Below, piece after piece: positions 27,641 to 64,000 of a stretch of DNA of 64,000 nucleotides. The stretch is from the NCBI RefSeq assembly GCF_002775205.1, contig NC_036464.1:1736001-1800000 (forward strand), in the 5' to 3' direction. The notes under the pieces were generated by a model. The model saw only the letters and a program-made list of their open reading frames with translations. It was not told where the DNA came from and did not search any database. Positions within the stretch are counted from its first letter, which is position 1. Each line of letters opens with the position of its first letter. The DNA comes from Xiphophorus maculatus. Taxonomy: Eukaryota; Chordata; Actinopteri; Cyprinodontiformes; Poeciliidae. The translations under genes were made by a program, and so were the position numbers.

Positions 27641-29639
27641 TTACACTGTGTTGGTGCATGGTGCAGACGTGTTTTCAACAGCTGTGCTGCTTAATTTCTG
27701 ATTGCCTAACATTTCACAATGGCAGCATGACTTCAGTAGTTTGTCCATCGCACTTTTTCTAATGCAAAAGTACATGGTTACATCTGCCAGAGGACTTAGA
27801 CAAAGACAAATGCAAGCCAAGCTGTCAAAAATCTGGTTAAATCTTAGTTCTTCCACTAATGACCAAATAATGTTAGGAAGAAACAGGAGAGTGTAAATAA
27901 GTAGCACCACAACCAGAAGTGTTACTATCCTTCGTTTTTCCTCAGCAGGGACACTGTAAGCTGCAGACAGAGCTTTGATGGTTTCAATGAGGAAGAAAAT
28001 CAAAATGGGGAATGGAAGGAGAAAGACGGCAGCAAAGATCATTTCTACAACCTGATGGTTTACATTAAAACAGTAAGGGAGAACACTGGCAAATGCCAAT
28101 GTCCATACCACGGCACAGACCATCAGAGACATCTTGATGTTCCTCCTGAATCTGTACCACAGCGGCTTGGCAATAACCAAATACCTGGAATGAAAGAAAC
28201 TCACTGATGATTGTACTCAGGACACAGAATTAAATGCAGAAGTTAATTCTCATGTGTATAAAGGTAACTACCTCTCCAGGGAGATGCAGACCATAAATCC
28301 AACACTGCCTGTTAGAGCAAGGAGGTAACTGTAGCTTATGATGTCATGTGACTCGCCTGCCTTCCAAGCTGCCAGGCAGCAGAGCTGAATAAGGTCAGAA
28401 ATGAGAAGGTTGATGATGTAGACCGGAACAGAGTGATCTTTTTGGATCTGCAGGGAAAGAAGCCATAAACATGTCCTGAAATAAAACTTGTTGCTTGTTC
28501 CATAGATACAAGAAAAATAGAACAAAAATGAGTAAAGGCCATATTTTGGATTTGTTTTGACAAAAACTAAGCTTTTCATGAGTATTAATGGTAAATGGCC
28601 TGTACTGGTATATCGCTTTGTCAAGACCAGAGAGGACTCTGAATCACTCCACACTACACTCACCCCTTCACTCATTCACACACACATTCAAACGCAGATG
28701 GAGGGAAGCTACTGGGCAGTAGCCACAGCTGCCCTGGAGCAAACTGACAGAGGCAGGCTGCCATAAACCGGCAACACCAGAGCCTCTGAACATCACCTGC
28801 AGGGAAACGTTTTGCCCAAGGAGACAACGACCAAGGTAGACAGAGGAGAACCAAACCCTACCACCATCGCTACTGTTAATCTGTACTATGAAAAAAAAAT
28901 ACATCTCATTTAGCAGCTGTTCCATGAATACATATTTAAATATATGCAGCAGTTCAAATATTCTGATCTTGTTTTTGCATGTCAGAAGCTATGAAAAAAG
29001 CTGCTGATGATGATGTTACATTACTCTGTGTACAGTGATGAAGATTCCCTAACCTCAGTATGCCGAATGCTTGGAGTGGCTAAGATGGGAGAGATGTTCA
29101 ACATATTTACTTTTATTCAATCTAACAGAAAAAATTCGTATTTCATAAAAAATACTGGTTTGAGCAATTAGAAGAACTGACTATGTGGTAAGCATTGCAC
29201 CTTTTGCCCAAGATGGTTTTAAGTATGAAAAACAAGTAAAAAATATAAAAAAGTGAATTACAGTGTAAGATTAAATCACGATTTATTCAGTTTTAATGCT
29301 GTAACACACCCTTGATCCAAACACACCAACATATTTCCTAGAAGTGACAGAATTTGGTTTTCAGCACAAAACATTTAGTTTATTTTTATTCAGACCCAAA
29401 GTGTCTTTAGTTACAGCAACACGTCAGGATAGACGGTGTGACAGCGTGAATGTCAGCGTACGTACCAGACAATAAACCGCACAGATCGCCACCAGCATCA
29501 GAGGAAGTCCTGTGCAAATAACTATTAATTCCACTAAATGTATGATTGACTCAACATTAAAGTCAGATTGGCTGCTGCTGTTGTTGGTGATGTTGAAGTC
29601 ATCAATGTTGTTGAAGGTGGTGTTGTCCTGCATTTCCAT
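27641..29639 (-). CDS. Class A GPCR, GPR4/OGR1-like (cluster gene A)
   Basis: This is a seven-transmembrane receptor that would act at the plasma membrane. CDS exons on the minus strand are 29639-29466 (58 codons, donor gtacgt, phase 0), 28447-28272 (acceptor ctgcag, donor gtagtt) and 28184-27641 (acceptor ttccag), giving 297 aa. The N-terminus has Asn-rich glycosylation motifs (NTT, NIT, NSS). TM1 spans about 31-57 and TM2 67-87 with the 'LLISDL' Asp76. TM3 ends in E-R-Y (116-118) and TM4 carries Trp144. ICL3 has 'EEKRR' (198-202), TM6 'FLP' and TM7 'SPLADVTMY' in place of NPxxY. A Cys cluster (270-273) after helix 8 may be palmitoylated. No Cys lies at the outer end of TM3, so the usual ECL2 disulphide is missing. 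The ligand is unknown; the GPR4-like label rests on resemblance. A fish repeat occupies intron 1. The frame is intact and looks functional. Confidence 0.88.
28586..28870 (+). repeat. Common fish dispersed repeat in intron 1 of gene A
   Basis: The copy starts 'ggtaaatggcctgtactgg', continues 'actcattcacacacacattc', 'gtagccacagctgccctgga', 'gacagaggcaggctgcc' and 'ttgcccaaggagacaacgac'. These are the ordered landmarks of one of the most abundant short interspersed repeats in teleosts. It is inserted between coding exons 1 and 2 of receptor gene A. The overlapping minus-strand frames are by-products of the repeat. Confidence 0.7.
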
Positions 29640-33627: not shown

Positions 33628-34320
33628 TTTTAGGTGCTTCAAATAGTATTTCAGGTAAACTTTAGACTGCATATGGTTAAGATTATTGTTATTGGCAGGA
33701 GCAGCTTTTTCAAGTTTGGTTCACTCATTCATTTGAATTACTTTGAGTGAAATGTTCATGCATTCAAGTTAAAACTGTGAAGAACACTCACTGCTGTTTC
33801 CTTGTTTAATACTTGGAAGTATATAAACAACTTAAAAACTCCTCATTCTCTGTCACTCACTGTTGGATTCTACCATTTATTCCTGTTTTCTCTCATTATT
33901 TTCCGGTTGCTTCATGTTACCTCCTAACATAGGTATCATAAGTTGCTATAGAGTTACAGAGAAAAAATAACAATGTACAAAACTTGTATCAAAAGCATAA
34001 AAAAAAAGATTCAACACTCAAAGTAAATAATGACAAAAGAGATGTTCTGAAGACATAAGGTAAATAAAGGGATATCAAATGGAAACAAAGTCCTTAGTGA
34101 ATGAAGCAGATTGTCTTCATGAGGTTATTCATTACATTTTGCTTTTAGTAGATATTTAGCCAACAAAGGAGTTAATGAAACATTTTTGAATAACCAAGTA
34201 TTTAAAACTGTTTTCTGTTGTAATCCTCAAAAGCAGCAGATCGTAGTGGACACACTTCTGCACCAAACAGGCAGCATAACAAAAACAGACTTAATATTTG
34301 CAGCCATTCCGTTTCCATGG
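33628..34320. other. Spacer 3' of gene B, nothing recognised
   Basis: This is AT-rich flank between the Tc1 element and the duplication boundary. A minus-strand AATAAA (33876-33881 as tttatt) could serve as a distant polyadenylation signal for gene B. Confidence 0.35.
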
Positions 34321-34337
34321 TCTGTGCTGATCGTCTC

Positions 34338-35500
34338 CTAATTGCTAGATATTTTACAACAACTCAGGGAAGCCAGAAACGTATCCAGGATGCTTTTCCG
34401 AACGAACAAATACAAAGTTGTGTCAGCAAGAGGACTAAGAACACCAGCAGCATAACCCACAGAATAGGAAATACAGGACAATTCCCCTTCCAATGCTTTA
34501 ATGTCATACAGGAGCAAAAGGATGATGGGCAGATAAAGCAGAGTGTAAATAATCAGCACCACAACCTGAATGGCTGCGATTCGTCGTTTTTCATCTGCTG
34601 GGACACTGACCGCTCCAGAGAGAGCTTTGATAGTCCCAACCAGGAAGAAGATGAACAAGGGAAAAGGCAGGAGGAGAAAAGCTATGAAGAAGTGGGCAGC
34701 CATCTCATACTCCTTAAACACATAGGCAATTAATGGATAAAAAAGAGGAAGTAACCAGACCACAATGCAGACCACCACATATGTCTTGATGTTTCTCCTG
34801 AATCTGTACCACATTGGCTTGGCAACAACCAGATACCTGCAATAACAGATAGAGATGATTAGAAGGTTATTAAGGACAGAATAATGTGATTATGTCAGAC
34901 AGAAGAGGAGTAAACATGGAAACACACCTTTCACAGGAGATACACACCATGAATCCCACACTGACCATTATAAAAACATATACAATTCTCATGTATGTGA
35001 AATCATCTGGACTGAGTCTACATAAATCTACTGGAATTCTGGAGAAGAGCTGAATGAGATCAGAGATGAGGAGGTTGATGACATAGACTGGAGCCTCCTG
35101 ACCCTTTTTCACCTGAGAGACAGACAAGAGAAAAAATATTAATGACATAAAAATATTCTTGACATGTAGGATGTTGTCTGTTCCTCATATTTTAGTCATT
35201 TCTAAGTCAAGACAGACTTCAACCTGAGACAAGAGAGAACCACTGTTTAAGTGGGAGGCTGATAGTCAAATAGCTTATTCATTCTAAATTAATAGGTTAA
35301 AATTATGCTGTGCTCACCTGAAAAACAATTGCAATCATCACTATAAAAATTAGAGGAAGTCCAATGCCAATGCTGATCCAATTCATCCAGTTTAAGATTT
35401 TTACAGACAAAGGATCTAAAGTAATTGCACCCATTGTACAGTTGAGGCTCATGTTCCCGCGGTTTAAACATGATGCGTCGTTGAAGTTCAATTCTTCCAT
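34338..35500 (-). CDS. Class A GPCR, GPR4/OGR1-like (cluster gene B)
   Basis: This is a plasma-membrane receptor of 288 aa. CDS exons on the minus strand are 35500-35318 (61 codons, donor gtgagc), 35112-34928 (acceptor ctctcag, donor gtgtgt) and 34836-34338 (acceptor ttgcag). The N-terminus has two sequons (NMS, NCT). TM1 spans about 38-60 and TM2 contains 'NLLISDL' (Asp79). TM3 ends in E-R-Y (122-124) and TM4 has Trp150. TM5 has 'LLLPFPLF', ICL3 'DEKRR' (204-208), TM6 'YLP' (226) and TM7 'SPLADTTLY' (257-265). A CC pair (282-283) lies after helix 8. ECL1 has Cys92 but ECL2 has no Cys. Gene D is its near-identical duplicate, differing at 13 residues. The open antisense frame over exon 3 is a shadow. 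The frame is intact; ligand and coupling are unknown. Confidence 0.9.
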
Positions 35501-36441
35501 CTTTCGGTGTTGAACCAGGAATTTGATGACACTAGAAACTGTAAACAGAAATGATGATAAATGCGTAAATTATTTATAATTGTTGCTTTAGCATAAGCAG
35601 TAAATCCTAACATTTACCATCAAAACCTAACTAACATTAAAATATACTGGTAAAAGTGGACAAATTTCTCCATCATAATACAGAGTCCTTAAGGTTTATC
35701 ATCTATATATCTATAGTCACCTCTCCAATCTGAGAAAGCCTTTCTGCGTTTTACAGTTCTGCTACTCTGTATCGACTAATGTTCATGTTTCAATTCAGAT
35801 TCTCTTCTGAAGGTCGGAACCAGATATTTACATGCGCTGAATAAAAAGACATGAATTCTTTCTCATTGTGGGAAGTTAAATCAGACCAAACCTTTCTTGT
35901 TTTAGGTTAATTCGAATTACCAAAATTATTTATATTTGCCGAATGCCAGAAAACTGAGGAAGAACGTTTTTTAGAGATTTTTTAAAAATTATTCTTGAAT
36001 TCAAAAGTTTACATACATTTGGTCAGTATCAGGGATAATTGTCTTTTAAACTACGAGTTTGGTCAAACCTTTTGGATTTCCTTCCACAAACATCTCACAA
36101 GTTTTCTGAAGTTCTGGTCCGTTCCTCCTGACAGAACCGGTGGAACTGAGTCCATTTTGCAGGCCGCCTCACTCCCACACACATTTCCATAGAACTGAGA
36201 TTGAGACTTTGTAATGGCCACACTAAAACACTGACTTTGTTGTCCTTAACCCCCTTTTATTACCACTTTGGCTCAATGCTTAGGGTTGCTACATGCATGC
36301 TCAGAATGAGAGATTCCTGACACAATACAAACAATTGTTTACTGTCGCTGTGACCAGGAGGAGTGAATGCTGCAAGTCGATGACTTGGTGCAATCTGCTG
36401 GGCTTCCTTAGAGAGAAAACGTTTGAGAATAATGACTACAC

Positions 36442-36465
36442 CATTAGCATTAGCATTAGCATTAG
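36442..36465 (+). repeat. (CATTAG)4 microsatellite
   Basis: Four perfect 6-bp units lie in the upstream region of gene B. The same four units occur at 53158-53181 upstream of gene D, so the tract predates the duplication. Confidence 0.8.
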
Positions 36466-37098
36466 GTTAGACCAAATTGGGAGACATGAAGGCAGGACAA
36501 TATGGACAAACACTAAGCTTTGAGTATAGCTTGGTTCACTTTTCACCCTCACACACTTTACCTTCAATACAAAACAGGAAGTACATTTTAATGGTGCATC
36601 ATTTTTAAGTTATGTGGCGTTCTTCTATAACTTACATAAAAGTAACATCTAGCTGACCTTTGTCATAAAACTTTTGAGTGAGACCAAAATAATATCTAAT
36701 TATGGATAAAATTATCCATGTTTAAAATTAAAGTAGACAGTAATCAAATTAGATTTTCCTTCAGTACATTATGAAAATGACCAAAGACGTTGTTGTCAAA
36801 AGGACAGACCATACAAAACTAGAGATTGTGGGAGATAAAATGTTTCCAAAAGTTTTGTTCCCTCACAACAATCATTTAAACTAGTTCCAATCTCAAAGGG
36901 CAGCTAATCTGAGCAACAGAAAGTCTCTGATTCATTATACTTTAGTTTTCTCTGGGAGATGTTGATGTACCACATATATCCAAATAGAGAGTTCTTGCTG
37001 TTATTGAATATGTAATGATGATTAGATAAGTGTTAATTTCTTATTTTTAGTAATTTAAAAAATACTGCATGCATAGAATTAAATTTAATATTTCTTAC

Positions 37099-37183
37099 CT
37101 TAAAGATTAATCGTTAATCCTCAATGAATTCTGCAGAGCTGCATCAGACGTTGTGTTCTCTGCGTTCCCAAAGTCTATTTATA
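37099..37183 (-). promoter_or_regulatory. TATA promoter and 5' non-coding exon of gene B
   Basis: On the minus strand a TATA box (TATAAAT, 37183-37177) is followed about 30 bp later by a presumed start near 37150, and then by a short exon ending 'aatctttaag|gtaagaaat' with a consensus donor at 37099/37098. The acceptor 'cagtttctag' at 35532 would join it to the exon carrying the ATG. The exact duplicate at 53815-53899 belongs to gene D, and a diverged counterpart precedes gene C. The start site is inferred from spacing only. Confidence 0.6.
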
Positions 37184-37189
37184 GCAATA

Positions 37190-38840
37190 TTAGACATTCA
37201 AATGTTTGATAAACAGAGATATGATCTGGACACACCTGCTTAGGGTTTGTCCCAAACAGGCATTGATTCTTAGTTGGTTAATTCTCTTGATCCTCCTTCA
37301 TTAAATGTATTTTTTATTTGATGATAAAATCAAAATCTAACTATTATGTTAAAGGTACTCACCTTCCAAATGTCAGGGTTACTGTAGAATAAGGAACTAA
37401 TGATGTGTGATGTCTACACAATATAGTTTTGATAAATGCACACACATATAGAAGTTCAATGGGTTTGATGTGAACATATTTTGATCTCCAGTTACACATT
37501 AAAACAACCTTATTACACTCATCAATGGCTTGTAATAGAATTTTTAAAAATCAGCTGTCCTCTGAAGTTGATTGGTTAAACTGACATCTAGAAAAGTTCT
37601 ATAGGAATAAAACATTTAACTTCCATTGATTCTAAGATCTACTATAACCAAATGTGAAATGAGAATGATGTTTGTGACTTTTGCAAGGAATTGTGATCCC
37701 CATTTAATTTTGTCTGTCATTCTGAAATGTTCTTTTCTATATGAGAATTATAATCACAGCTAAACTTTGAAGGTTTGCAGTGTTATTCCCGTATATTGTA
37801 GAAGTCAGAAAATACTGAAATAAGTCTATCTATATCTTCCTTCTTTTCATTTTCATTTGCATGATTCATTTCATTACATTAGAACAATATACATATTTCG
37901 AGGAACACTGAACAAAGGGCTGCTTCAGGTAGAGTTGATGATATCAGAACTCCGTGTCATGAAGTTTGGTGGAGCCACAGGCATTGTGCTTTATATTAAA
38001 GTCTATCATGTAAATCTTATCAGTTAAAACAATGAACAGTCTGTGCATAAAGAGCAGGAAAAATTCCCCAAAGCCGATTATATCTGCTTCCACATTTCTT
38101 TAAGGACAGGACTTGTAAACAAATGCAAAAGAGTACATGCAACTTGACATCTAGAAATGTTCTGTAGGCTAAACATATACATTTATATGACATGAAAACT
38201 CAGAGCTTTAGTCATGATTGATGGCAACATCACTGACCAGAGTCCTGTTTAGAAACCAGGACAGCAAGAACTGAGCACAAAGCAGACACTCTGAGAAGAC
38301 TTACCTAGGTCTGTGGGACTTAGGTTTTGGTTTCAGAACCAAACCAGGTGGTATGTCAAAATCCAACCCTTACTATACAGTTCATTTAAATTCTTTATTT
38401 TGCCTTATATTATATTTTTATGTGAGTCTATTTCAAGTGTTTATGGGTCTAAAGCAACTCTACGCAGTTGTGTCTTCAGCCTTGATTTAAAGGAACTCAG
38501 TGTTTCAGCTGTTTTACAGTTTTATGGAAGTTTATTGTAGACTTGAGGTACATAGATGCTGCACATTTCCTAACCACTTCTCCTAACTATACAAAACATC
38601 ATATATCATCCCATATAAGGGATAACCTGTCATTTGCTCAAATGAACCACTTTAAACTTAAAAATGAACAGTGGACGTCAATATTGTAACATATGAATCT
38701 GACAGCAGAATTATTTAGCTTACTCTTTTTTGTTACACATCTTAATATTTACACAGGACAAACATGACTATATTAAATATTAGAACATTTTGCAGGCAGG
38801 TAAATATCTGGATAACATGTTGACTATAGTGTACTAATGA
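37190..38840. other. Upstream flank of gene B within the duplication
   Basis: This is AT-rich DNA shared with copy 2. Near 38430 copy 2 carries 1231 additional bases ('gagtctattt|caagtg' here is contiguous), so this locus is either the unoccupied site or a deleted form. No gene is recognised. Confidence 0.4.
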
Positions 38841-38917
38841 CTTAGTGCATGCTCACATATTTCATTCTCATACTTATGTTAGCAGTGAAATGAAGCTCAT
38901 CTGTTGGCAGGAGGGTC

Positions 38918-39139
38918 ATGGACAGAGCACAGCCACTTTGTCTCACTGTTGCTCAAGATGCAATCAGCATCAAACATCATCTGTGTATCATTCTAGACAT
39001 GGCTCTGTTTGGTGCAGTGCAGGATATTGGGACCCAGCAGTCTGCACAGGTAGCGGACATCAGAACCAGAGAAATGTTAACGCTCATGCAGGTAAAGCCA
39101 ACGGGTCGGACCTGGTCCAAAACACTCTTTACTGTCTGA
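38918..39139 (+). other. Duplicated 73-codon open frame of unknown nature
   Basis: A locally GC-richer segment holds an ATG-initiated frame of 73 codons, overlapping another of 100 codons in a second frame (38845-39147). Both survive in the duplicate at 57011-57232 and 56938-57240 with a few substitutions. The protein resembles nothing I know. It could be a relic exon, part of a non-coding transcript or chance; the duplication is too recent for survival of the frame to count as evidence of selection. Confidence 0.2.
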
Positions 39140-39493
39140 CAAGATAAGTTGTAACAAAGCTAATAAAATGTATCCTGTCATCAGCAGCTCCCTTGATAGA
39201 GACACTATGTATGTTTATAATCTAAATAAGTAAATTTTAACAATTGTGTGATTTAAACTTTGCATACATTTAATTAAATGTCAAACTAAATTTGTTTAAG
39301 TTGTGAACATTTTAAGTTTAGTGGCTGAATTGCCATTAAATTTAAAAATTTGTGAATAAAGTGTGATCCTTCATTTGGCAACACATTTAATATTCTATTG
39401 AATGTTTTTCTGTCAAACTCATAACAGCAGCAGTCTCAGAAACAGTGAAACAGTAACAATGCCCACATGGGCAATTATAGTTACTATCATAAT

Positions 39494-42918: not shown

Positions 42919-43997
42919 CTAAGCTGTCTCAATACACAGAGTTGACATTTTGTTAGTGTCCATTCTACTCATTTCCTGCTTGTTGGACATTTCACAGCAA
43001 CACAATGAAGCCAAAACTTTGTCAATGACACTTTCCCTAAGAAGCACGTACATCGCTGTGTCTGCAAGAGGACTAATATAAACACAAATGAAGGCCAGAC
43101 TGGTGAAACTAGGATGCTGTTGTTCATTTATATCTAAAAGAATATAAATGATGACCGGCAGGAACAGCAGGATATAACCATGTGCTGCAGACAGAGATTT
43201 TATGGTGCCAACTGTGAAGAAGATGAATGAGGGAAAAGGGAGGAGGAGGAAACTGGAAAAGATTATCTTTTTAATTCCAGAATCGACCTGAATATAAAAA
43301 GTGGTGAGAAAAACAAAAGGGAGGATCCAGACCACAGCACACACAGTGAAAGCTCCCCTGATGTCCCGCTGGAATGTGTACCACATAGGCTTGGCAATGA
43401 TCATGTATCTGTAATGAAAGAGTCACAAAGTATGAGGCGGTGTGAGACAGAAAAAGTGGGATTCATTTATGGAGACAGGTACCTTTCTAGTGACAGACAC
43501 ACCATGAAACCAACACTGGCCATTAGGCCTATCATGTAGGAGAAAAAGGGGACGTTATGTTCATGTGCCATCAGTGCAATGCTGCTGCAGAGCTGAATGA
43601 GATCAGAAATGAGAAGGTTGACGACGTAAACTGGAGCACAGTTGCCCTTTTTCACCTGCAGGACAGACAAACAACGCAAAACGTTACAAATTGATGTTCC
43701 TTGTTCTACAAATAGAACATGTTATTGATTTGCCAAACAAAATGACAAGAAACATGAAAACCTAACAAAAACACAATCATTTTAAATTAAATCATCTAAA
43801 TCAGAAAGTACTTTACTCACCAGTTTGAAAACTAAAAATATGGAGACTAGGTTCAAAGGAAGTCCAATGCAGATGATGACCAGATGCACTACATTGGTCA
43901 ATCCTCCCTTGAAGTAAATATAGTCCCTTAAGACGTGATAAGTATTCTCAATGTTATTGTAATCAATGCTGAAGTTGCTGTTATTGGTGTTTTCCAT
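42919..43997 (-). CDS. Class A GPCR, GPR4/OGR1-like, with TM6/ICL3 deletion (cluster gene C)
   Basis: CDS exons on the minus strand are 43997-43821 (59 codons, donor gtgagt), 43655-43483 (acceptor ctgcag, donor gtacct) and 43408-42919 (acceptor ttacag), giving 279 aa. The Met at 43997 is preferred over the upstream Met at 44030 because an acceptor ('aaatctcag', about 44014) falls between them. The receptor has an N-terminal sequon (NFS), 'NLLISDL' in TM2 (Asp77), E-R-Y (116-118), Trp144 in TM4, 'SPLADTAMY' in TM7 and a CCC cluster after helix 8. After 'SLSAA' (188-192) the sequence jumps to 'GYILLFLP'. Relative to genes A and B about 19 residues are missing, including the basic 'EKRR' of ICL3 and the cytoplasmic half of TM6. 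The reading frame stays open. G-protein coupling is probably impaired, so this may be a decoy receptor or a young pseudogene. Confidence 0.75.
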
Positions 43998-49429: not shown

Positions 49430-51036
49430 AAATGTTGCATTTGGGATTATATGTAATTTTATGCGGACCATACATTTGTCATACAGTAAAATAGCTGCAT
49501 GTTAGGCCCTGCTGCTTGCAATGTATTGTAGAAGCCAGAGAGGTAGTAGGTTTTTTCATGATGTCATTGTGTTAAACATCAGGGTTTACAGTTAATGCTG
49601 ATGCTGTTATTTGTCGTGTAAACGCAGAGCGATGCTGCAGAATCACCAGTGAGACAGTTCTGCTTACTGTGTTTAACTCTTATTAAGGAAGAATAATTAT
49701 AAATTATCTTCGGACAAAACGTTTGGCTCTCTCTTCCTTAAACTTCCGGGTCCTCTCAGCGGGCGACGTGCAGCCACAAGGAAAACAACAACACTGCGCG
49801 TTGACGTCACAGAATCACAGAGTTTAATCCCATACAAAGCAACGTATGCATCAACAACAAAACTGCAGAGGAACAGAGATATGCATTCTTTACCTGAGAC
49901 AGACAAAGACAAACAAAAAACAAAACAAAGACGCGTCTTTGCAGAGAGCGATGCAAAAAAGCAAAATAGTGGCAGCTCTCTGAATTTTTACTCCTGTACA
50001 CGAAGTCTTATACTGAAGGTGTGTCTTCCCTTTTTTAATATATTCAGTTAAGGCGTCCCTCTAGTTGGCCACTTGGAAGCTACCTTGGACACTCAGAGAA
50101 ACTTAGAAACTCCCCCTAATTTTACGGCAAAGATCAAAGACCATTTGCTCTCTGGTAAAAACAAAAGAGCCAACAGCTGCATCCTAGCCTCCTGGGTTCT
50201 ATGGTCATTTGGGTACAGAGAAACCTGAGATAAGATTTCACAGATGCCTGTGAAATCCGAAGTCTCTCCCGTTATCTCCCCCAGGCTCCAGTGATTCTGC
50301 CCTGCAGGATATGCTAATTTTATGGCCTTCTGTGCTCTGGCAGCACAGCAGGAGTCCCCATTGAGAGATCTACATTTGGTTCCTGTTTGTCTGAATGCTT
50401 GGTCATCTGGTTTAATTTTGAATCCTTAACACAAATCTGTTCAAAATAAAGACATTTGTTCAAAATAAGAGTGTTCAATATACCTTTTACACATGCCGTA
50501 AGATTAACTGTATTAAGCACTAAAAATAATCATTTTTCCTCAACACTCTGCAACCCTGCAGTTGAGCTGTGGCTCTGGGGCTCCTGAACTCACCACAGTC
50601 TAAGTGTACTTGATAAAGGTGCTAACCAACACGCACTAGCTAATGGTGCTGAGAGCCCTGTAGACCTGGTCCTTTGAAGGATTTGAAGGACTGGTCCTGC
50701 TGAATTGAGACAGCAGGACCGTGATGAAGAAAGACAACACATTTCTGCACTGCAGGTTAACACCTTTCACAGTTTTAACTGAAGTTAGTGTGAAGAATTA
50801 ACCATTCTCCATGCTAAGTTATCGATGTATGAGGTTGAAGAAGAGTCAGTGAACTGAATTCATGAATTCAATTTATTGAAGTAAAACACAGCTGGTCCAT
50901 TCTGACATGCTACCTCTAAGAGCTAACAGACAAAATGGCATCCGAAAACAGTTGGTGATCCTCTTTGTTAGCCTCTATGTAAGCCAGGGTGACAAACTGC
51001 AGTCCTGAATGGCCGGTGACCTGCAACTTTTAGATG
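49430..51036. other. Intergenic DNA 3' of gene D
   Basis: A CpG-richer stretch (about 49720-49810) includes a CRE palindrome (TGACGTCA, about 49802). No gene is recognised. A minus-strand AATAAA (50873-50878, as tttatt) about 180 bp past the stop of gene D is a plausible polyadenylation signal. Confidence 0.35.
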
Positions 51037-51053
51037 TCAGTGCTGATCATCTC

Positions 51054-52216
51054 CTAATTGCTAGATATTTTACAACAACTCAGGGAAGCCAGAAACGTAT
51101 CCAGGATGCTTTTCCGAAAGAACACATACAAAGTTGTGTCAGCAAGAGGACTAAGAGCACCAGCAGCATAACCCACAGAATAGGGAATACAGGACAATTC
51201 CCCTTTAAATGCATTAATGTCATACAGGAGCAAAAGGATGATGGGCAGATAAAGCAGAGTGTAAATAATCAGCACCACAACCTGAATGGCTGCGAGTCGT
51301 CGTTTTTCATCTGCTGGGACACTGACCGCTCCAGAGAGAGCTTTGATAGTCCCAACCAGGAAGAAGATGAACAAGGGAAAAGGCAGGAGGAGAAAAGCTA
51401 TGAAGAAGTGGGCAGCCATCTCATACTCCTTAAACACATAGGCAATTAATGGATAAAAAAGAGGAAGTAACCAGACCACAATGCAGACCACCACATATGT
51501 CTTGATGTTTCTCCTGAATCTGTACCACATTGGCTTGGCAACAACCAGATACCTGCAATAACAGATAGAGATGATTAGAAGGTTATTAAGGACAGAATAA
51601 TGTGATTATGTCAGACAGAAGAGGAGTAAACATGGAAACACACCTTTCACAGGAGATACACACCATGAATCCCACACTGGCCTTTATACAAGCATATACA
51701 ATTTTCATGTATGTGAAATCATCTGGACTGAGTCTACATAAATCTACTGGAATTCTGGAGAAGAGCTGAATGAGATCAGAGATGAGGAGGTTGATGACAT
51801 AGACTGGAGCCTCCTGACCCTTTTTCACCTGAGAGACAGACAAGAGAAAAAATATTAATGACATAAAAATATTCTTGACATGTAGGATGTTGTCTGTTCC
51901 TCATATTTTAGTCATTTCTAAGTCAAGACAGACTTCAACCTGAGACAAGAGAGAACCACTGTTTAAGTGGGAGGCTGATAGTCAAATAGCTTATTCATTC
52001 TAAATTAATAGGTTAAAATTATGCTGTGCTCACCTGAAAAACAATTGCAATCATCACTATAAAAATTAGAGGAAGTCCAATGCCAATGCTGATCCAATTC
52101 ATCCAGTTTAAGATTTTTACAGACAAAGGATCTAAAGTAATTGCACCCATTGTACAGTTGAGGCTCATGTTCCCGCGGTTTAAACATGATGCGTCGTTGA
52201 AGTTCAATTCTTCCAT
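51054..52216 (-). CDS. Class A GPCR, GPR4/OGR1-like (cluster gene D, duplicate of B)
   Basis: CDS exons on the minus strand are 52216-52034, 51828-51644 and 51552-51054, at a constant offset of 16716 from gene B and with the same splice sites, giving 288 aa. Exon 1 is identical to that of B. The replacements relative to B are R103K, V107A, F108C, M110K, V111A, I209L, K236N, L238F, E239K, S246P, V255A, L266V and V268F; I found no silent change. M110K places a lysine in the outer half of TM3, and 236-246 covers ECL3 between the TM6 Pro226 and TM7. This suggests an altered binding pocket rather than decay. All core motifs (Asp79, E-R-Y, Trp150, DEKRR, 'SPLADTTLY') are kept. Upstream, the duplicated TATA promoter and non-coding exon lie at 53815-53899. 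Confidence 0.9.
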
Positions 52217-53814
52217 CTTTCGGTGTTGAACCAGGAATTTGATGACACTAGAAACTGTAAACAGAAATGATGATAAATGCGTAAATTATTTATAATTGTT
52301 GCTTTAGCATAAGCAGTAAATCCTAACATTTACCATCAAAACCTAACTAACATTAAAATATACTGGTAAAAGTGGACAAATTTCTCCATCATAATACAGA
52401 GTCCTTAAGGTTTATCATCTATATATCTATAGTCACCTCTCCAATCTGAGAAAGCCTTTCTGCGTTTTACAGTTCTGCTACTCTGTATCGACTAATGTTC
52501 ATGTTTCAATTCAGATTCTCTTCTGAAGGTCGGAACCAGATATTTACATGCGCTGAATAAAAAGACATGAATTCTTTCTCATTGTGGGAAGTTAAATCAG
52601 ACCAAACCTTTCTTGTTTTAGGTTAATTCGAATTACCAAAATTATTTATATTTGCCGAATGCCAGAAAACTGAGGAAGAACGTTTTTTAGAGATTTTTTA
52701 AAAATTATTCTTGAATTCAAAAGTTTACATACATTTGGTCAGTATCAGGGATAATTGTCTTTTAAACTACGAGTTTGGTCAAACCTTTTGGATTTCCTTC
52801 CACAAACATCTCACAAGTTTTCTGAAGTTCTGGTCCGTTCCTCCTGACAGAACCGGTGGAACTGAGTCCATTTTGCAGGCCGCCTCACTCCCACACACAT
52901 TTCCATAGAACTGAGATTGAGACTTTGTAATGGCCACACTAAAACACTGACTTTGTTGTCCTTAACCCCCTTTTATTACCACTTTGGCTCAATGCTTAGG
53001 GTTGCTACATGCATGCTCAGAATGAGAGATTCCTGACACAATACAAACAATTGTTTACTGTCGCTGTGACCAGGAGGAGTGAATGCTGCAAGTCGATGAC
53101 TTGGTGCAATCTGCTGGGCTTCCTTAGAGAGAAAACGTTTGAGAATAATGACTACACCATTAGCATTAGCATTAGCATTAGGTTAGACCAAATTGGGAGA
53201 CATGAAGGCAGGACAATATGGACAAACACTAAGCTTTGAGTATAGCTTGGTTCACTTTTCACCCTCACACACTTTACCTTCAATACAAAACAGGAAGTAC
53301 ATTTTAATGGTGCATCATTTTTAAGTTAAGTGGCGTTCTTCTATAACTTACATAAAAGTAACATCTAGCTGACCTTTGTCATAAAACTTTTGAGTGAGAC
53401 CAAAATAATATCTAATTATGGATAAAATTATCCATGTTTAAAATTAAAGTAGACAGTAATCAAATTAGATTTTCCTTCAGTACATTATGAAAATGACCAA
53501 AGATGTTGTTGTCAAAAGGACAGACCATACAAAACTAGAGATTGTGGGAGATAAAATGTTTCCAAAAGTTTTGTTCCCTCACAACAATCATGAAAACTAG
53601 TTCCAATCTCAAAGGGCAGCTAATCTGAGCAACAGAAAGTCTCTGATTCATTATACTTTAGTTTTCTCTGGGAGATGTTGATGTACCACATATATCCAAA
53701 TAGAGAGTTCTTGCTGTTATTGAATATGTAATGATGATTAGATAAGTGTTAATTTCTTATTTTTAGTAATTTAAAAAATACTGCATGCAAAGGGTTAAAT
53801 AAAATATTTCTTAC

Positions 53815-53899
53815 CTTAAAGATTAATCGTTAATCCTCAATGAATTCTGCAGAGCTGCATCAGACGTTGTGTTCTCTGCGTTCCCAAAGTCTATTTATA
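53815..53899 (-). promoter_or_regulatory. TATA promoter and 5' non-coding exon of gene D
   Basis: This is an exact duplicate of the gene B promoter: TATAAAT at 53899-53893, presumed start near 53866, and donor 'ctttaag|gtaagaaat' at 53815/53814. The partner acceptor is at about 52248. A few substitutions occur just past the donor ('gcaaagggtt' here against 'gcatagaatt' in B). Confidence 0.6.
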
Positions 53900-54145
53900 G
53901 CAATATTAGACATTCAAATGTTTGATAAACAGAGATATGATCTGGACACACCTGCTTAGGGTTTGTCCCAAACAGGCATTGATTCTTAGTTGGTTAATTC
54001 TCTTGATCCTCCTTCATTAAATGTATTTTTTATTTGATGATAAAATCAAAATCTAACTATTATGTTAAAGGTACTCACCTTCCAAATGTCAGGGTTACTG
54101 TAGAATAAGGAACTAATGATGTGTGATGTCTACACAATATAGTTT

Positions 54146-54290
54146 TGATAATAGAATAGAATATAGAATAGAATAGAATAGAATAGAAATGACTTCACAG
54201 TTACAGCATAGAGACAAGACACAATAACAACTACCACTGATTAGTAGCTGTAGATAAAATACTAAAAAAAAAATAGTAGCTTTGATGTGA
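54146..54290. repeat. (AGAAT)n tandem and inserted stretch specific to copy 2
   Basis: A run of 'agaatagaatagaatagaat' units followed by about 100 bases replaces a short segment of copy 1 ('aaatgcacacacatatagaag'). The pentamer tail is typical of the 3' end of a fish non-LTR element in reverse orientation. Confidence 0.6.
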
Positions 54291-55298
54291 ACATATTTTG
54301 ATCTCCAGTTACACATTAAAACAACCTTATTACACTCATCAATGGCTTGTAATAGAATTTTTAAAAATCAGCTGTCCTCTGAAGTTGATTGGTTAAACTG
54401 ACATCTAGAAAAGTTCTATAGGAATAAAACATTTAACTTCCATTGATTCTAAGATCTACTATAACCAAATGTGAAATGAGAATGATGTTTGTGACTTTTG
54501 CAAGGAATTGTGATCCCCATTTAATTTTGTCTGTCATTTTGAAATGTTCTTTTCTATATGAGAATTATAATCACAGCTAAACTTTGAAGGTTTGCAGTGT
54601 TATTCCCGTATATTGTAGAAGTCAGAAAATACTGAAATAAGTCTATCTATATCTTCCTTTTTTTCATTTTCATTTGCATGATTCATTTCATTACATTAGA
54701 ACAATATACATATTTCGAGGAACACTGAACAAAGGGCTGCTTCAGGTAGAGTTGATGATATCAGAACTCCGTGTCATGAAGTTTGGTGGAGCCACAGGCA
54801 TTGTGCTTTATATTAAAGTCTATCATGTAAATCTTATCATTTAAAAAATGAACAGTCTGTGCATAAAGAGCAGGAACAATTCCCCAAAGCCGATTATATC
54901 TGCTTCCACATTTCTTTAAGGACAGGACTTGTAAACAAATGCAAAAGAGTACATGCAACTTGACATCTAGAAATGTTCTGTAGGCTAAACATATACCTAA
55001 ACCAGAGAAACATAGATGCCATAAAACTGGAAGATTCTCTAATAAAAAAGACATGAAAAGTCAGAGCTTTAGTCATGATTGATGGCAACATCACTGACCA
55101 GAGTCCTGTTTAGAAACCAGGACAGCAAGAACTGAGCACAAAGCAGACACTCTGAGAAGACTTTTCTTAGGTCTGTGGGACTTAGGTTTTGGTTTCAGAA
55201 CCAAACCAGGTGGTATGTCAAAATCCAACCCTTACTATACAGTTCATTTAAATTCTTTATTTTGCCTTATATTATATTTTTATGTGAGTCTATTTGCT

Positions 55299-56526
55299 GT
55301 TTTTGTCTGTTAATTTGCTGCTGTTGTACAGAAATGTCCCCATTGTGGGATAACAAATGATATTTCTATTCTATTGTATCAATTAGTTAACTGTCAGTCA
55401 AGAAGACATCTCTGAGTAAAGAAATATTAAAAAACTCCCCACAATGGAAAGTAGATAACATGATCTACCATGGCAGCTCAAGGAAATCAGAAGACAAAGT
55501 GTCATTTCTTGCTAATGGAATTAGAAATCTGTCAGTGTATTCACATCAGGAGTCCTTTGCTCCACTTGTTTGGACCAGACCAAAAGTTGATTTAATCTGT
55601 TTCTCTTGGTGTCACTTGTTTTCACATTATTCTTTTTTTCAATAGGACTATAATTTCTAAACAATGTCTTACGGGTGACGATCATTTCTGCCATGGACCG
55701 AAATGACAGAACCCAGACCTGAAAAGACTAACTTTGGAAATCCTGCACCCTGTATTTCTATTGTGCACATTTGTGCTGCTATTATAATGACTGCAATACC
55801 ATTTTCAATGTCTAAGCAGTTCATTCAATGCAGAATTTGGAATGTGATATTTCTAATTTGTAACATTAGCAAAAGTTGCTGCAAAGTGAATGAGACGAGA
55901 TGAGCTGCATGCTCTGACCCACAACATCCTGGAAGAAGCATCGCTAATCAGAAAATGGCAGATCAGGTGCAATTATAGTACAATCAGAACATGCAGCAGC
56001 AGCGCTAGTAACACTGACCGTATTCAGGTGTCATGTTTAAATGCCTTCATGAGACCAGAGGAAAATGTTTAAAAGGTTTGTTATAAAATGAAATGAATTT
56101 GTGGATGTTTTTGATTTTCTGTTGGAAGGACTGAAGGGACCAGCAAAGCCATCTGAAGTCAAACTGTCAGGTTTATTAGATGGAAACATAGTACAATCTG
56201 CTTAAGGAAAAGTACATGCAGTGCTGTAGGAGTTACATAATGTTATAATTTCCATATCCATGCTGAGAAAAATTCCTCAATTAGGTTAAGGAACGAAGAG
56301 CAGAGTGAGAGGAACTCCATCAGCCTCTTGTTGTAGGTAACAAATCATTTCCTGATGATGATGTAGTGATGAAAACTGACACAAAGATTCTTCTGCCTCT
56401 TCCTCTGCTTTGCCCCCTAACTCCACCTCAGACTCACTCCTCTTCCTCTTCTTCTTTCTTTCTGTACATTTTGTCAAGTGCTGTGATTAAAATCATCTAT
56501 ACATATTAGACGTGTTGGTCAATGTT
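55299..56526. other. 1231-bp indel relative to copy 1
   Basis: This segment interrupts the duplication ('gagtctattt' before, 'caagtgtttatgg' after). The left part 'gtccccattgtgggataac', then 'atttctattctattg', looks like the tail of a fish retroelement. No clean target duplication flanks the segment, only a shared 'tt', so a deletion from copy 1 is at least as likely as an insertion here. No gene is recognised inside. Confidence 0.55.
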
Positions 56527-57010
56527 CAAGTGTTTATGGGTCTAAAGCAACTCTACGCAGTTGTGTCTTCAGCCTTGATTTAAAGGAACTCAGTGTTTCA
56601 GCTGTTTTACAGTTTTATGGAAGTTTATTGTAGACTTGAGGTACATAGATGCTGCACATTTCCTAACCACTTCTCCTAACTATACAAAACATCATATATC
56701 ATCCCATATAAGGGATAACCTGTCATTTGCTCAAATGAACCACTTTAAACTTAAAAATGAACAGTGGACGTCAATATTGTAACATATGAATCTGACAGCA
56801 GAATTATTTAGCTTACTCTTTTTTGTTACACATCTTAATATTTACACAGGACAAACATGACTATATTAAATATTAGAACATTTTGCAGGCAGGTAAATAT
56901 CTGGATAACATGTTGACTATAGTGTACTAATGACGTAGTGCATGCTCACATATTTCATTCTCATACTTATGTTAGCAGTGAAATGAAGCTCATCTGTTGG
57001 CAGGAGGGTC

Positions 57011-57232
57011 ATGGACAGAGCACAGCCACTTTGTCTCACTGTTGCTCAAGATGCAATCAGCATCAAACATCATCTGTGTATCATTCCAGACATGGCTCTG
57101 TTTGGTGCGGTGCAGGATATTGGGACCCAGCAGTCTGCACAGGTAGCGGACATCAGAACCAGAGAAATGTTAACGCTCATGCAGGTAAAGCAAACAGGTC
57201 GGACCTGGTCCAAAACACTCTTTACTGTCTGA
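57011..57232 (+). other. Duplicate of the 73-codon open frame at 38918-39139
   Basis: The frame is retained with a few substitutions, including I-to-P and P-to-Q. Identity is unknown; see the copy-1 entry. Confidence 0.2.
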
Positions 57233-57591
57233 CAAGATAAGTTGTAACAAAGCTAATAAAATGTATCCTGTCATCAGCAGCTCCCTTGATAGAGACACTA
57301 TGTATGTTTATAATCTAAATAAGTAAATTTTAACAATTGTGTGATTTAAACTTTGCATACATTTAATTAAATGTCAAACTAAATTTGTTTAAGTTGTGAA
57401 CATTTTAAGTTTAGTGGCTGAATTGCCATTAAATTTAAAAATTTGTGAATAAAGTGTGATCCTTCATTTGGCAACACATTTAATATTCTATTGAATGTTT
57501 TTCTGTCAAACTCATAACAGCAGCAGTCTCAGAAACAGTGAAACAGTAACAATGCCCACATGGGCAATTATAGTTACTATCATAATGTTAA

Positions 57592-57784
57592 AATGAAGCC
57601 TAGGCGCAAATTCAAACTGGAAGACTCTTTTATCCCCACCGGGACCCGTTAATTGAAGCGACCTGCCCACAATCGTCGACCTATCAACGCCGGACCAAGC
57701 CACGTCACGTCCAATCACCGACCAAGTCCCAGCTGATAAGGACCTTCATTCATGGCGTCCTTCGCTCTCCAGCCGAGCTCAACC
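57592..57784 (+). repeat. Terminal module A1
   Basis: A 193-bp unit beginning 'aatgaagcctaggcgcaaat' and ending 'gccgagctcaacc'. It is identical by eye to 62788-62980. Confidence 0.95.
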
Positions 57785-58785
57785 TGTTCAGCTGCACGCC
57801 TCAGCTCTCAGTCAGCTATCTCACCAGATCCTTTTCGTCGTTATTGCTCGTCCTTCCACCTCTAATGTCAGTCACAAAAGCTGCTTAGCCGCGGGCTCGG
57901 CTCCTTCTTTTCCTTCAGACGCTCCTCAGATGGAAGAAGAGTTCCTCCCGGTCCAGGCCTCATTCATTCCAGACAGCTTCTCCCGCCGCTCTCTCGCCGA
58001 TCTGGGATCTACCGGCCCTCGCTCCTATGCCACCCGCTTCACGATCCGTCTCTGGCAAGTGGACACATAATCCCACCGTCTACGTTGCATACGTCCCCTG
58101 GCAGCCTTTCTCCGCCCCGGCCGGGCCGCAACGTCTCACTGCTTCGATCTACGCTGCCGTTTCCTCCCAGCTCATCGTCCACCATCTTCCTTTCCACCGC
58201 CAGCGTTCATCGCACCGCCTTCCCACTGGTTCCCCGCTTTGGCTCAAATCCGCATGGCCGCTGTCAGCCCGCCCGTCAGCGCCTCCCATCGGACTTCCCA
58301 CGCCACGCCCGCCTCGGGCTTCGGGGGTAAGACGTAGCCTTCACGTGCCTCATTCACTCTTTACAACGCGACAAAACGTAGGAACTTTATTAGTTGATCC
58401 CCTTCCTGAACTCGCAGGCCCTACTCGCATGCGCCTTTCAGGCTGCGTTCCAAACTTCATCATTCTTACATCAGTTAGTTACATTTTGGGCTTCCGTACT
58501 TCCCATGCATGTGTTCTCGCTCTTTTTCGCAGTTAAAACTGCTTATCTGATGTTTTCATGTCGTGGCCTTTTTCTCCAAGCCGCCTTTAAACGCATCATG
58601 AGTGCTGAGACACTCGCGCTGGGTTACCCAGAGGGCAGCGAAGGAGAGCGCAGGCGCGTTAGAACCTCGGCAACAATCAGCAAACGCAAAGAACCGTGCA
58701 AATGTTTCCCCAAACCAACCGACTGAGGCGAATAGGGCCGTTTGATACAGGCAATCATAGCTAAAAGTTCACTCTCATAATACAG

Positions 58786-59042
58786 ATAGCTAAAAGGCGA
58801 CTCTAGCACTTCAGATGGCCAAAACGTGACTAGCAATTCAGTTAGCTAAAAGGTGACTCTAGTAATTCAGTTAGCTAAAAGGTGATTCTAGTAATTCAGT
58901 TAGCTAAAAGGTGATTCTAGTAATTCAGTTAGCTAAAAGGTGATTCTAGTAATTCAGTTAGCTAAAAGTCGTCTCTAGTAATACAGATAGCTGAAAGTCG
59001 TCTCTAGTAATACAGATGGCTAAGAGTTGACTCCAGTAATAC
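58786..59042 (+). repeat. 29-bp tandem repeat array
   Basis: About nine copies of a 29-bp unit ('ttagctaaaaggtgattc' plus 'tagtaattcag') lie inside the element. The central copies are near identical and the outer copies diverge ('gatagctgaaagtcgtctc'), the usual pattern for a tandem array. Confidence 0.9.
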
Positions 59043-60740: not shown

Positions 60741-61732
60741 ATATATATAAAAATCCCCAGTTCATCTTCAGCATTCTTTTCACGTAATGAGTATCTCTCC
60801 TCCGTGTTCGCAGCTTCCCTCAGTGCCAGACGAGCACTGCACGATCCACTGGTGGTGGTTGGTCAACCTCAGGCAAAAGTGCACACTCTTATGCAGCAAT
60901 CGTGATGCATGTCCTTCCCCTCATCGTCCTTCACACTTTTATTTTCAGGTTCATTCTAGAATGATCTTGTCTTTCGCCCGTTTCCTCTAACGTCACCCTC
61001 CGAGTCTGATCCTAGCATCAGCATCCCACCTACAGTAGCAGGCAGTTATTTTCTCACTCTAGTCTATTCATTCTCCCATCCTCTTTTGCTATCTCACAGC
61101 TAGCTTCCTTCCACCAGCTTACATATCTTTTCATAGCATCCACTTTACCTTTGTTCACCTTCATCTACCATCTTCTCGTCTCTTACCTCTATCTCTGCAA
61201 TCATCTTCTAATTACTCCTCGAGACATAGCCCGTAAGCCCCTAGTTAGCCTAGCTCCTCCTGCCTCTAATTCTGAGCTTCGGCCCTGGCCTCAGCTCTTT
61301 TTGGGGGGATTTCATTCTCTATCAGTAATATCACTCCATAGTATCATTATTTCACCTCTACTGGCCTTCACCCACCAGCATTCCACCTTCTCTTGCCCCG
61401 CTGTGTCCCCGCTCACCCATAGTGATCACTCTTCTCCCAGCGGCACTCCTCCCTATGCCTCGAACCATTCCCAGCTGTCCTTCAGCCATCTGCCTCTCTC
61501 CTATAATGCCTCGCTGCGCTTCCAGCTTGCTTCTTTTTCTAACCAGCTGCCCCTCATCCCTTGTCCTGTTCCTTCCTCTGCTGGTCCCTTCCATGTCTTC
61601 GTTACCTCCTAAGCCCTGCCGCTACCAGCTGGCTTCTTTTTCTAGCCAGCTGCCCCGTATACTTTTCCCTGCTCCATCTCCTCTATTCAATGCGTCCCTT
61701 TATCTTAAGCCCTGCTCCCTCTATCCTACACC

Positions 61733-62145
61733 CCTCTTTAGTTAATGCTGGCGTTTTTCAACCAGCATCCCCTGTCTTATGCCCTGCTCCCCTCATCCTA
61801 CACCCCTCTTTAGTTAATGCTGGCGTTTTTCAACCAGCATCCCCTGTCTTATGCCCTGTTCCCCTCATCCTACACCCTCCTTTAGTTAATGCTGGCGTTT
61901 TTCAACCAGCATCCCCTGTCTTATGCCCTGCTCCCCTCATCCTACACCCTCCTTTAGTTAATGCTGGCGTTTTTCAACCAGCATCCCCTGTCTTATGCCC
62001 TGCTCCCCTCATCCTACACCCTCCTTTAGTTAATGCTGGCGTTTTTCAACCAGCATCCCCTGTCTTATGCCCTGCTCCCCTCATCCTACAACCCTCTTTA
62101 GTTAATGCTGGCGTTTTTTTAAACCAGCATCCCCTCTTCTAAGCC
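61733..62145 (+). repeat. Six-copy 72-bp tandem array, one hairpin per unit
   Basis: The landmark 'gttaatgctggcg' recurs at 61741, 61813, 61885, 61957, 62029 and 62101, exactly 72 bp apart. Each unit contains 'atgctgg', about ten bases, then 'ccagcat', a perfect 7-bp stem. Because 72 is divisible by 3, a 193-codon frame (61561-62142) stays open through the array, but its composition gives no sign of a real protein. Confidence 0.92.
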
Positions 62146-62618
62146 CTGCTTCTATCCCTTCATTCTCACCCCACGCATTCCCCGCCGGCTTTCCTATCAT
62201 CATGCCCTGCCGTGTCCTCTGCCAACTATCGCCAGCCCACGTCCATCCCACTAGTCCCGCAGCATTTCCAGCCGGCTCATCCTCCAGCATCCCTATGCCC
62301 TGCGTTCTGCTACTCCATGCCCCGTTGTGTCCTCAGCCGGCCGTCACCTCCCAACATCCCTTCCTCCCTTGTCCTGCCGTATCCCCAGCCGGCTCTCACA
62401 CCACGTCCCTATGCCCTGTGTTTTGTGTATTCTACCGCCTCTTGCCCTGCAGCATTCCCAGCTGGTCTTCACTTCCCGTCCTACTCTCCCTCTCCTTTAA
62501 CTGTCATGTCACGTCCTTTACGTTATTAACTCGGTAGCCAAAGTCAGCGCAACTTCTTTCCCCCTTTTTACTTTCTGCCTTATATTCACGGCCTCGGCCC
62601 CGGCCTCGGCCTCTTTTT

Positions 62619-62790
62619 GGGGGATGACGTTCCTAACAGCATCGGGGATGCTCATCTGAAGCCTATCGCTAACGCTGCGATAACCGTTATCCCCAGCCGG
62701 GGCCCGAGCGCCAAAGACTTTAAATTCTGTTTGTCAATAAACTCTTCTAATTGTCTTCTCATCTCCGTCTGAGTCTCTCCAGATTGAAAT
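62619..62790 (+). repeat. Terminal module B1
   Basis: A 172-bp unit beginning 'gggggatgacgttcctaac' and ending 'ctctccagattgaaat'. It is identical by eye to 63061-63232 and is preceded by a 'ggcctcggcctcttttt' tract. Confidence 0.95.
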
Positions 62791-62980
62791 GAAGCCTAGG
62801 CGCAAATTCAAACTGGAAGACTCTTTTATCCCCACCGGGACCCGTTAATTGAAGCGACCTGCCCACAATCGTCGACCTATCAACGCCGGACCAAGCCACG
62901 TCACGTCCAATCACCGACCAAGTCCCAGCTGATAAGGACCTTCATTCATGGCGTCCTTCGCTCTCCAGCCGAGCTCAACC
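62788..62980 (+). repeat. Terminal module A2
   Basis: The second copy of module A. It directly abuts B1 and shares the AAT at 62788-62790. Confidence 0.95.
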
Positions 62981-63807: not shown

Positions 63808-64000
63808 CTAAACAGTCTCAGTATGTGTTGCAGACCTGCTTTCATAATCTGTGCTGCTCGTCTCCTGATGGTTAGATATTTTACAAGAACAGATTGAAGC
63901 CAGAAACTTATCCATGATGCTTTTCCGTATGAACAAATACAAAGTTGTGTCAGCAAGAGGACTAAGACAAATACAAACTATAGCCACTGTATAGAGAGTA
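63808..64000 (-). CDS. Class A GPCR, GPR4/OGR1-like, C-terminal part (cluster gene E, truncated by window end)
   Basis: The minus strand from the window edge reads 'TLYTVAIVCICLSPLADTTL', then 'YLFIRKSIMDKFLAS', a 'CSCKIS' cluster and a Ser/Thr-rich tail ending 'HTETV', with the stop at 63810-63808. This is TM7 with the 'SPLADTTLY' motif, helix 8 and the cytoplasmic tail of a further receptor, closest in this stretch to genes B and D. It continues past position 64000. Its tail is longer than that of B/D, which end at 'CCKISSN'. The homology with B/D extends for a few bases past their stop codons, so the shorter B/D tail probably arose by a premature stop. The visible frame is intact. Confidence 0.87.
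   Translation of the reverse strand, partial: TLYTVAIVCICLSPLADTTLYLFIRKSIMDKFLASICSCKISNHQETSSTDYESRSATHTETV

What the first reader, a model, noticed from the sequence alone, without database searches (positions are those of the whole stretch)
51054..52216. Duplicate receptors B and D differ by 13 replacements and no silent change
Reading genes B and D side by side I count 13 nucleotide differences in 867 coding bases. All change the protein, while the two coding introns and about 1 kb upstream appear identical. The changes cluster: five within 25 bp in TM3 (34964-34988 in B), three close together in ECL3 (34490-34497) plus S246P, and three in TM7. Neutral drift after duplication would put most changes in non-coding DNA. 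Either strong diversifying selection acted on the ligand pocket, or short gene-conversion tracts were pasted in from other members; D's 'ASVGF' in TM3 matches gene C.
Basis: partly seen in the sequence, partly recalled or inferred. Interest (0 to 1): 0.8.

Follow-up and report, generated by a model that had tools for sequence, protein, structure and literature searches.

The report
Young twin receptor genes diverging fast
Two nearly identical neighbouring fish receptor genes differ at 13 coding bases, every one of which changes the protein, and another young set of copies in the same gene array shows a similar pattern, as expected if natural selection is pushing the copies apart.

Summary
B and D (867 coding bases) differ at 13 bases: all 13 are replacements, with none in 296 bp of intron or 1,112 bp upstream. 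Further upstream the same duplicated unit differs at 21 of 2,845 noncoding bases, and those differences are clustered too.

For B/D alone, 13 of 13 replacements has P of about 0.02, and the density excess fades when changes within 10 bp or more are counted as single events. Stronger support comes from the genome around the window, a tandem array with at least 16 analysable members. In a second young set (H/J/L/N), replaced codons pile up in the outer halves of the receptor (44 of 176 outer against 16 of 262 inner, pairs H-J and L-N), far above the 3' noncoding rate. A third set (K/M/O) shows no replacement excess.

None of the other 14 aligned members, and no other place within 3 mismatches in the searchable genome, carries D's TM3 tract. 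A pasted-in donor is therefore not supported. Best reading: diversifying selection on mostly outer-half sites, with gene conversion homogenising the rest, as in red/green opsins.

The parts
51054..52216 (-). Receptor gene D, coding span: exons 52216-52034, 51828-51644, 51552-51054; 288 aa; the copy that appears transplanted
   Evidence: open frame, GT-AG introns; Pfam 7tm_1 E 1.5e-16; its 3' flank shows no likeness to gene E's flank
34338..35500 (-). Receptor gene B, coding span: exons 35500-35318, 35112-34928, 34836-34338; 288 aa
   Evidence: Pfam 7tm_1 E 2.5e-16
51036..57586 (.). Duplicated unit, D copy (about 1.2 kb and smaller insertions relative to B)
34320..39493 (.). Duplicated unit, B copy
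51680..51704 (-). TM3 cluster in D: five second-position replacements in 25 bp (B: 34964-34988)
   Evidence: scan test P 0.003 for 13 changes on 867 bases
51119..51213 (-). ECL3/TM7 differences in D: codons 236, 238, 239, 246, 255, 266, 268 (B: 34403-34497)
51296..51296 (-). Isolated I209L change, cytoplasmic start of TM6 (B: 34580); D is the odd one out among the 15 of 16 aligned members that have this codon
51705..53328 (.). 1,624 bp identical to B 34989-36612: exon 1, intron 1, part of exon 2 and 1.1 kb upstream; likely recent conversion tract
27641..28447 (-). Gene A, exons 2 and 3 of a diverged member
42919..43997 (-). Gene C, member lacking 19 codons at ICL3/TM6
63808..64000 (-). Gene E, 3' end; the gene continues beyond the window

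Best explanation
B and D are a young tandem pair in an expanding array of class A receptors, nearest among solved structures to GPR4/GPR68. Shown: within the coding exons and introns they differ only by replacements, the 5' half is identical over 1.6 kb, and a second young set in the array concentrates replacements in the outer halves. Indicated: D is the transplanted copy (its 3' flank has lost the likeness to gene E that B keeps). Inferred: gene conversion between B and D (or simple youth) keeps most of the unit alike, while selection favours copies with a changed outer half (TM3, ECL3, top of TM7), so that they sense different ligands.
For: 13 of 13 replacements, none in introns or 1.1 kb upstream. 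Replacements per replacement site 2.1% against 0.54% per noncoding base of the unit, P 3e-4 by sites. Outer-half replacements 10/221 sites against inner 3/298, P 0.019. Replicate pairs H-J and L-N: replaced codons 44/176 outer against 16/262 inner, P 3e-8, with silent-only codons 5/132 and 5/246. Outer replacements 57/417 against 3' noncoding 61/3,351, P 4e-25 (these tests treat sites as independent). Deficit of silent codons against neutral simulation over exons 2-3 in B-D, H-J, L-N: P 0.025, 0.024, 0.052, combined 0.002. Sliding divergence peaks of 23%, 23% and 19% at TM2-TM3, ECL2-TM5 and TM6 top-ECL3, with 0-11% in the other windows. Mosaic partitions in the quartet, runs 22 against 33.6, P 0.0002, point to exchange among members.
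Against: On B/D alone the case is weak: P about 0.02 for no silent change, found after the fact. Counting nearby changes as one event removes the density excess (P 0.0097, 0.064, 0.13, 0.21 for grouping distances 5, 10, 15, 25 bp). Clusters exist in noncoding DNA too (13 of 23 sites have a neighbour within 15 bp, expected 3.2), so clustering itself is not a mark of selection. In the outer halves alone the silent deficit is P 0.061, 0.038, 0.086 (combined 0.009). Three of the 13 changes lie on the cytoplasmic side. K/M/O, another young set, shows no such pattern. The outer/inner split was set after seeing the alignment, though by conserved landmarks. No ligand or expression data.
Confidence: 0.66

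Rival explanations
1. Short conversion tracts pasted diverged sequence from another array member into B or D, carrying several changes at once.
For: Clustered changes; members at about 80% identity exist (B-E 105/132 bases in the 3' end); mosaic partitions in H/J/L/N show exchange does occur in this array.
Against: None of the other 14 aligned members carries the haplotype: best match to D's five TM3 states is 3 of 5 (P), to B's 2 of 5. D's 33-bp tract has no other match within 3 mismatches in the searchable genome. K110, L209, P246, A255 and F268 of D occur in no other aligned member. Not searched genome-wide, because the calls did not complete: B's tract and D's ECL3-TM7 segment.
Confidence: 0.12
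2. Chance: neutral drift plus multinucleotide mutations in a young duplicate, with no selection.
For: P 0.011-0.044 for 13 of 13; event-corrected density P 0.06-0.21 for grouping distances of 10-25 bp; noncoding clusters.
Against: Identical introns and upstream DNA need a separate cause; the same outer-half, replacement-rich pattern recurs in H-J and L-N.
Confidence: 0.15
3. Assembly artefact: haplotype variants or errors placed as two loci.
For: No reads available here.
Against: The copies lie 16.7 kb apart with gene C between, have different flanks and carry their own indels, including about 1.2 kb in D. Among the 50 listed places only two match B's exon 3 above 90%. Random errors would not be expected to spare silent sites and introns (inference).
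Confidence: 0.07

Closest known systems
Primate red/green (L/M) opsin genes
   Same: Tandem class A receptor duplicates tens of kb apart; introns more alike than exons; peaks of divergence at functional sites maintained against gene conversion (PMC3924837, passages; PMC3213168, abstract).
   Different: Here the ligand is unknown, the pair is very young and fixation across species is untested.
GPR4/GPR68/GPR65 (proton-sensing) receptors
   Same: GPR4 and GPR68 are the best sequence matches among solved structures (E about 1e-15 by single sequence, 6e-19 by profile).
   Different: Low similarity. No Cys at 3.25, T in place of P at 7.50, a single His in the whole of B; a multi-member array with coding introns.
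Orphan GPR201 clade beside GPR4/68/65/132
   Same: Described as an orphan with local duplicates in gar and some fishes (PMC6504862, passages).
   Different: No sequence of it was available to compare; assignment is only a lead.

Membership tests
Class A (rhodopsin-like) GPCR | Pfam 7tm_1 above gathering score | tested here: met
   60.4 and 61.1 bits against a cut-off of 30.5
Class A (rhodopsin-like) GPCR | E/DRY at TM3 and NPxxY/DPxxY at TM7 (motifs recalled) | tested here: inconclusive
   ERY present; TM7 reads DTTLY, P7.50 replaced
Class A (rhodopsin-like) GPCR | C3.25-ECL2 disulfide (recalled) | tested here: not met
   Residue at 3.25 is Asp; no Cys between 146 and 244. Some class A receptors also lack it (recalled)
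Proton-sensing GPR4/68/65 family | Extracellular histidine set (recalled) | tested here: not met
   One His (171) in all of B
Proton-sensing GPR4/68/65 family | Tree placement inside the clade | not tested
   No vertebrate receptor set at hand beyond PDB chains
GPR201 orphan clade | Orthology to the Ensembl entries named in PMC6504862 | not testable with these tools
   Sequences not held
Duplicates diverging under pressure of gene conversion (opsin type) | Coding peaks of divergence flanked by near-identical introns | tested here: met
   B/D and H/J/L/N sliding windows
Duplicates diverging under pressure of gene conversion (opsin type) | Intron trees group by species, exon trees by gene | not testable with these tools
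   No second fish genome held

The most novel reading that the evidence does not exclude
The array is an undescribed repertoire of fish receptors whose outer halves are diversified like those of chemosensory or pathogen-sensing receptors, by selection plus segment exchange within a homogenised framework, with B/D caught at the first step before any silent change has accumulated.
Probability: 0.35. Interest if true: 0.65.

Novelty: new member of a known kind. Interest (0 to 1): 0.46.

Why it matters
If right, B and D give a ready-made minimal comparison: two receptors with identical introns, identical 1.1 kb of upstream DNA and 13 amino-acid changes, in an array where three young sets show different regimes (two replacement-rich, one conserved). 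This would allow the effect of each change on ligand choice to be measured and would help deorphanise a GPR4-like receptor group. It also shows that, in such arrays, replacement-only divergence should be judged against other young pairs and the whole duplicated unit, not the gene alone.

Tried and rejected
Gene C as donor of D's TM3 tract: rejected. Gene E as donor at the 3' end: at codons 246, 255, 266 and 268 E agrees with D once (246, first base), with B once (266) and with neither at 255 and 268. Tract search in the window: no place outside B/D matches either TM3 form within 8 mismatches of 37; for the TM7 pair the nearest is gene E (2 mismatches to B's form, 3 to D's); the 13-base queries are too short to tell anything. 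Scan of the joined array plus two outlying member loci for the 33-base TM3 tract: nearest outside B/D is 10 mismatches from D's form, none within 11 of B's.

Silent excess in outer halves: my first count (Nei-Gojobori paths, tested) gave 15/111 outer against 5/190 inner silent changes. Recounting only codons whose amino acid is unchanged gave 5/132 against 5/246, P 0.33. The first figure is a path-counting effect of codons with several changes, so the tests on outer silent sites are withdrawn. All six pairs still lean the same way (outer/inner silent codons: HJ 2/65 v 3/119; LN 3/67 v 2/127; HL 4/55 v 4/122; JN 7/50 v 0/120; HN 6/54 v 3/119; JL 3/54 v 1/121). Taken alone J-N is P 0.0001 and H-N P 0.03, but those two were picked after the fact and the pairs are not independent.

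Rows dropped: low-complexity stretches 37436-37463 and 38181-38188, and all indels, from the noncoding count (positions typed into); codon 123 (split by intron 2) and exon 1 from the array comparison; nine more distant exon-3 hits beyond 1,892,000; member I from the noncoding comparison. The 5' flank counts involving J are not used because J's 5' flank does not align there. Gene C's exon 2 was first cut one base short and redone. One viral-contig scan found no relative. Structure prediction was not used: its rule asks for proteins read letter for letter from the DNA and these are spliced.

Full report
Check of the observation. The window carries receptor genes on the minus strand. B and D sit in a duplicated unit (B 34320-39493, D 51036-57586). 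Spliced, each gives an 867-nt frame of 288 codons with GT-AG introns, and they differ at 13 bases, all of which change the amino acid. Both introns (296 bp) and 35501-36612 are identical. Two further differences lie in the 18 bp just after the stop codon (34323, 34333).

How unlikely is it. For random substitutions the replacement share is 0.71-0.79 across ts/tv weights 0.5-4, so 13 of 13 has P 0.011-0.044. Restricted to the diverged part (34338-34988), all 13 falling on replacement sites rather than silent or intron-2 sites has P 0.002. By sites, replacements (13 on about 620) exceed the unit's noncoding rate (23 on 4,271), P 3e-4. With neighbouring changes counted as one event the coding excess is P 0.0097, 0.064, 0.13 and 0.21 for grouping distances of 5, 10, 15 and 25 bp. 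Clustering is not peculiar to the exons: 10 of 13 coding and 13 of 23 noncoding differences have a neighbour within 15 bp, against 3.2 expected for the noncoding set. The identical run of 1,624 bp is improbable (expected 12 differences, P 6e-6; by events P 0.0085). A recent homogenising exchange between B and D over exon 1, intron 1, part of exon 2 and the upstream DNA is the simplest cause.

What it is. Both proteins match Pfam 7tm_1; the nearest solved structures are GPR4 and GPR68. Oddities of B: ERY at TM3, no Cys at 3.25 or in ECL2, DTTLY in place of DPxxY, one His only (motifs recalled). The genome is held (704.3 Mb, 101 contigs; the window is C22:1736001-1800000) and the family forms a tandem array from about 1,763,700 to 1,934,600 of that contig. 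Sixteen members (A-P) were aligned over exons 2 and 3; nine more distant exon-3 hits were left out.

Which copy moved. B's 3' flank still resembles gene E's (local score 53; 300 shuffles: mean 33, sd 5, maximum 52), D's does not (24 against 26), so D looks like the transplanted copy; this is a modest margin. Among sites that can be polarised, D appears derived at codons 110, 111, 209, 236 and 266 and B at 108 and 246; the other six are unclear (my reading; codon 236 lies beside an alignment gap). B and D share a TAG where E has CAG, which shortens their tail.

Donor test. At the five TM3 sites none of the other 14 aligned members matches more than 3 of D's states or 2 of B's. Gene C has ATG-GCC at codons 110-111, where B has ATG-GTC and D AAG-GCC. 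D's 33-bp tract has no second match within 3 mismatches in the searchable genome (the tool warns that simple repeats and very common words are skipped). So I find no existing source for that tract in this assembly. The matching searches with B's tract and with D's ECL3-TM7 segment did not complete.

Replication inside the array. Members H, J, L and N share units 95-97% alike. Splitting the receptor at conserved landmarks (outer: residues 80-112, 151-180, 226-257 in B numbering), the pairs H-J and L-N, which share no gene, replace 44 of 176 outer codons but 16 of 262 inner ones (P 3e-8), while silent-only codons are 5 of 132 and 5 of 246. Their 3' noncoding DNA differs at 61 of 3,351 bases, and outer replacements (57 on 417 sites) exceed it with P 4e-25. 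These P values treat sites as independent. Sliding 60-base windows, averaged over the six pairs, show three peaks (23%, 23%, 19%), which by exon position fall at TM2-TM3, ECL2-TM5 and TM6 top-ECL3; the other windows are at 0-11%. Neutral simulation over exons 2-3 expects more silent codons than seen in B-D, H-J and L-N (P 0.025, 0.024, 0.052; combined 0.002); for the outer halves alone P 0.061, 0.038, 0.086 (combined 0.009). Informative sites in the quartet support three conflicting groupings in clustered order (37, 18 and 6 of 61; 22 runs against 33.6, P 0.0002), the mark of exchange between members. K/M/O behave otherwise: coding 3/666 against noncoding 22/867 for K-O (P 0.0009), 5/666 against 21/867 for K-M (P 0.015), 2/666 against 3/871 for M-O (P 1). 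The array is therefore not uniformly diversifying.

Where the changes lie. By counting from R3.50, P6.50 and D7.49 the 13 sites are 3.30, 3.34, 3.35, 3.37, 3.38, 6.33, 6.60, 6.62, 6.63, 7.34, 7.43, 7.54 and 7.56. Ten are in the outer half as defined here (10/221 against 3/298 sites, P 0.019). From recalled anatomy several TM3 sites face neighbouring helices rather than the classical pocket, so 'ligand pocket' is too narrow; 'outer half and TM3 packing' is safer.

Interpretation. The pattern matches what has been described for the red and green opsins: introns held alike by conversion, and exon peaks of divergence kept by selection (PMC3924837, passages; gibbons, PMC3213168, abstract). For B/D the selection step is inferred; for H/J/L/N it is better supported. 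I searched the held library for reports of such an array and saw only the top of each listing (11 of 11; 8 of 829; 12 of 30,360; 12 of 29; 8 of 271). The nearest lead was the orphan GPR201 with local duplicates in gar (PMC6504862, passages). I saw no description of this array in those listings, which does not show that none exists.

Noticed in passing
window 42919-43997 (-): Gene C lacks 19 codons at ICL3/TM6 relative to A, B and D, in frame; it may be non-functional.
   Followed up: partly
window 34338 and 51054: B and D end at a TAG where E has CAG, giving a receptor tail about 20 residues shorter than in A, C and E.
   Followed up: partly
window 55296-56517 and 54150-54188: D's unit has about 1.2 kb absent from B, with no terminal inverted repeats reported, and an AATAG repeat.
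   Followed up: partly
window 57588-57784 and 62784-62980: 197 bp at 99.5% identity, directly beside the end of D's unit and again near gene E: another recent duplication.
   Followed up: no
window 58758-59040 and 61703-62150: Minisatellites of 29-bp and 72-bp units.
   Followed up: no
window 32750-33313 (+): Fragment of a Tc-type transposase (Pfam HTH_Tnp_Tc3_2, E 9e-18).
   Followed up: yes
L011, G000:C22:1827933-1828642: Gene I matches K/M/O closely but its C-terminal end departs abruptly from theirs.
   Followed up: no
G000:C22:1862715-1864251 and 1874056-1875592: Members M and O are 99.7% alike over 1.5 kb, by identity at least as close as B/D, but without the coding excess (2/666 coding against 3/871 noncoding).
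   Followed up: partly
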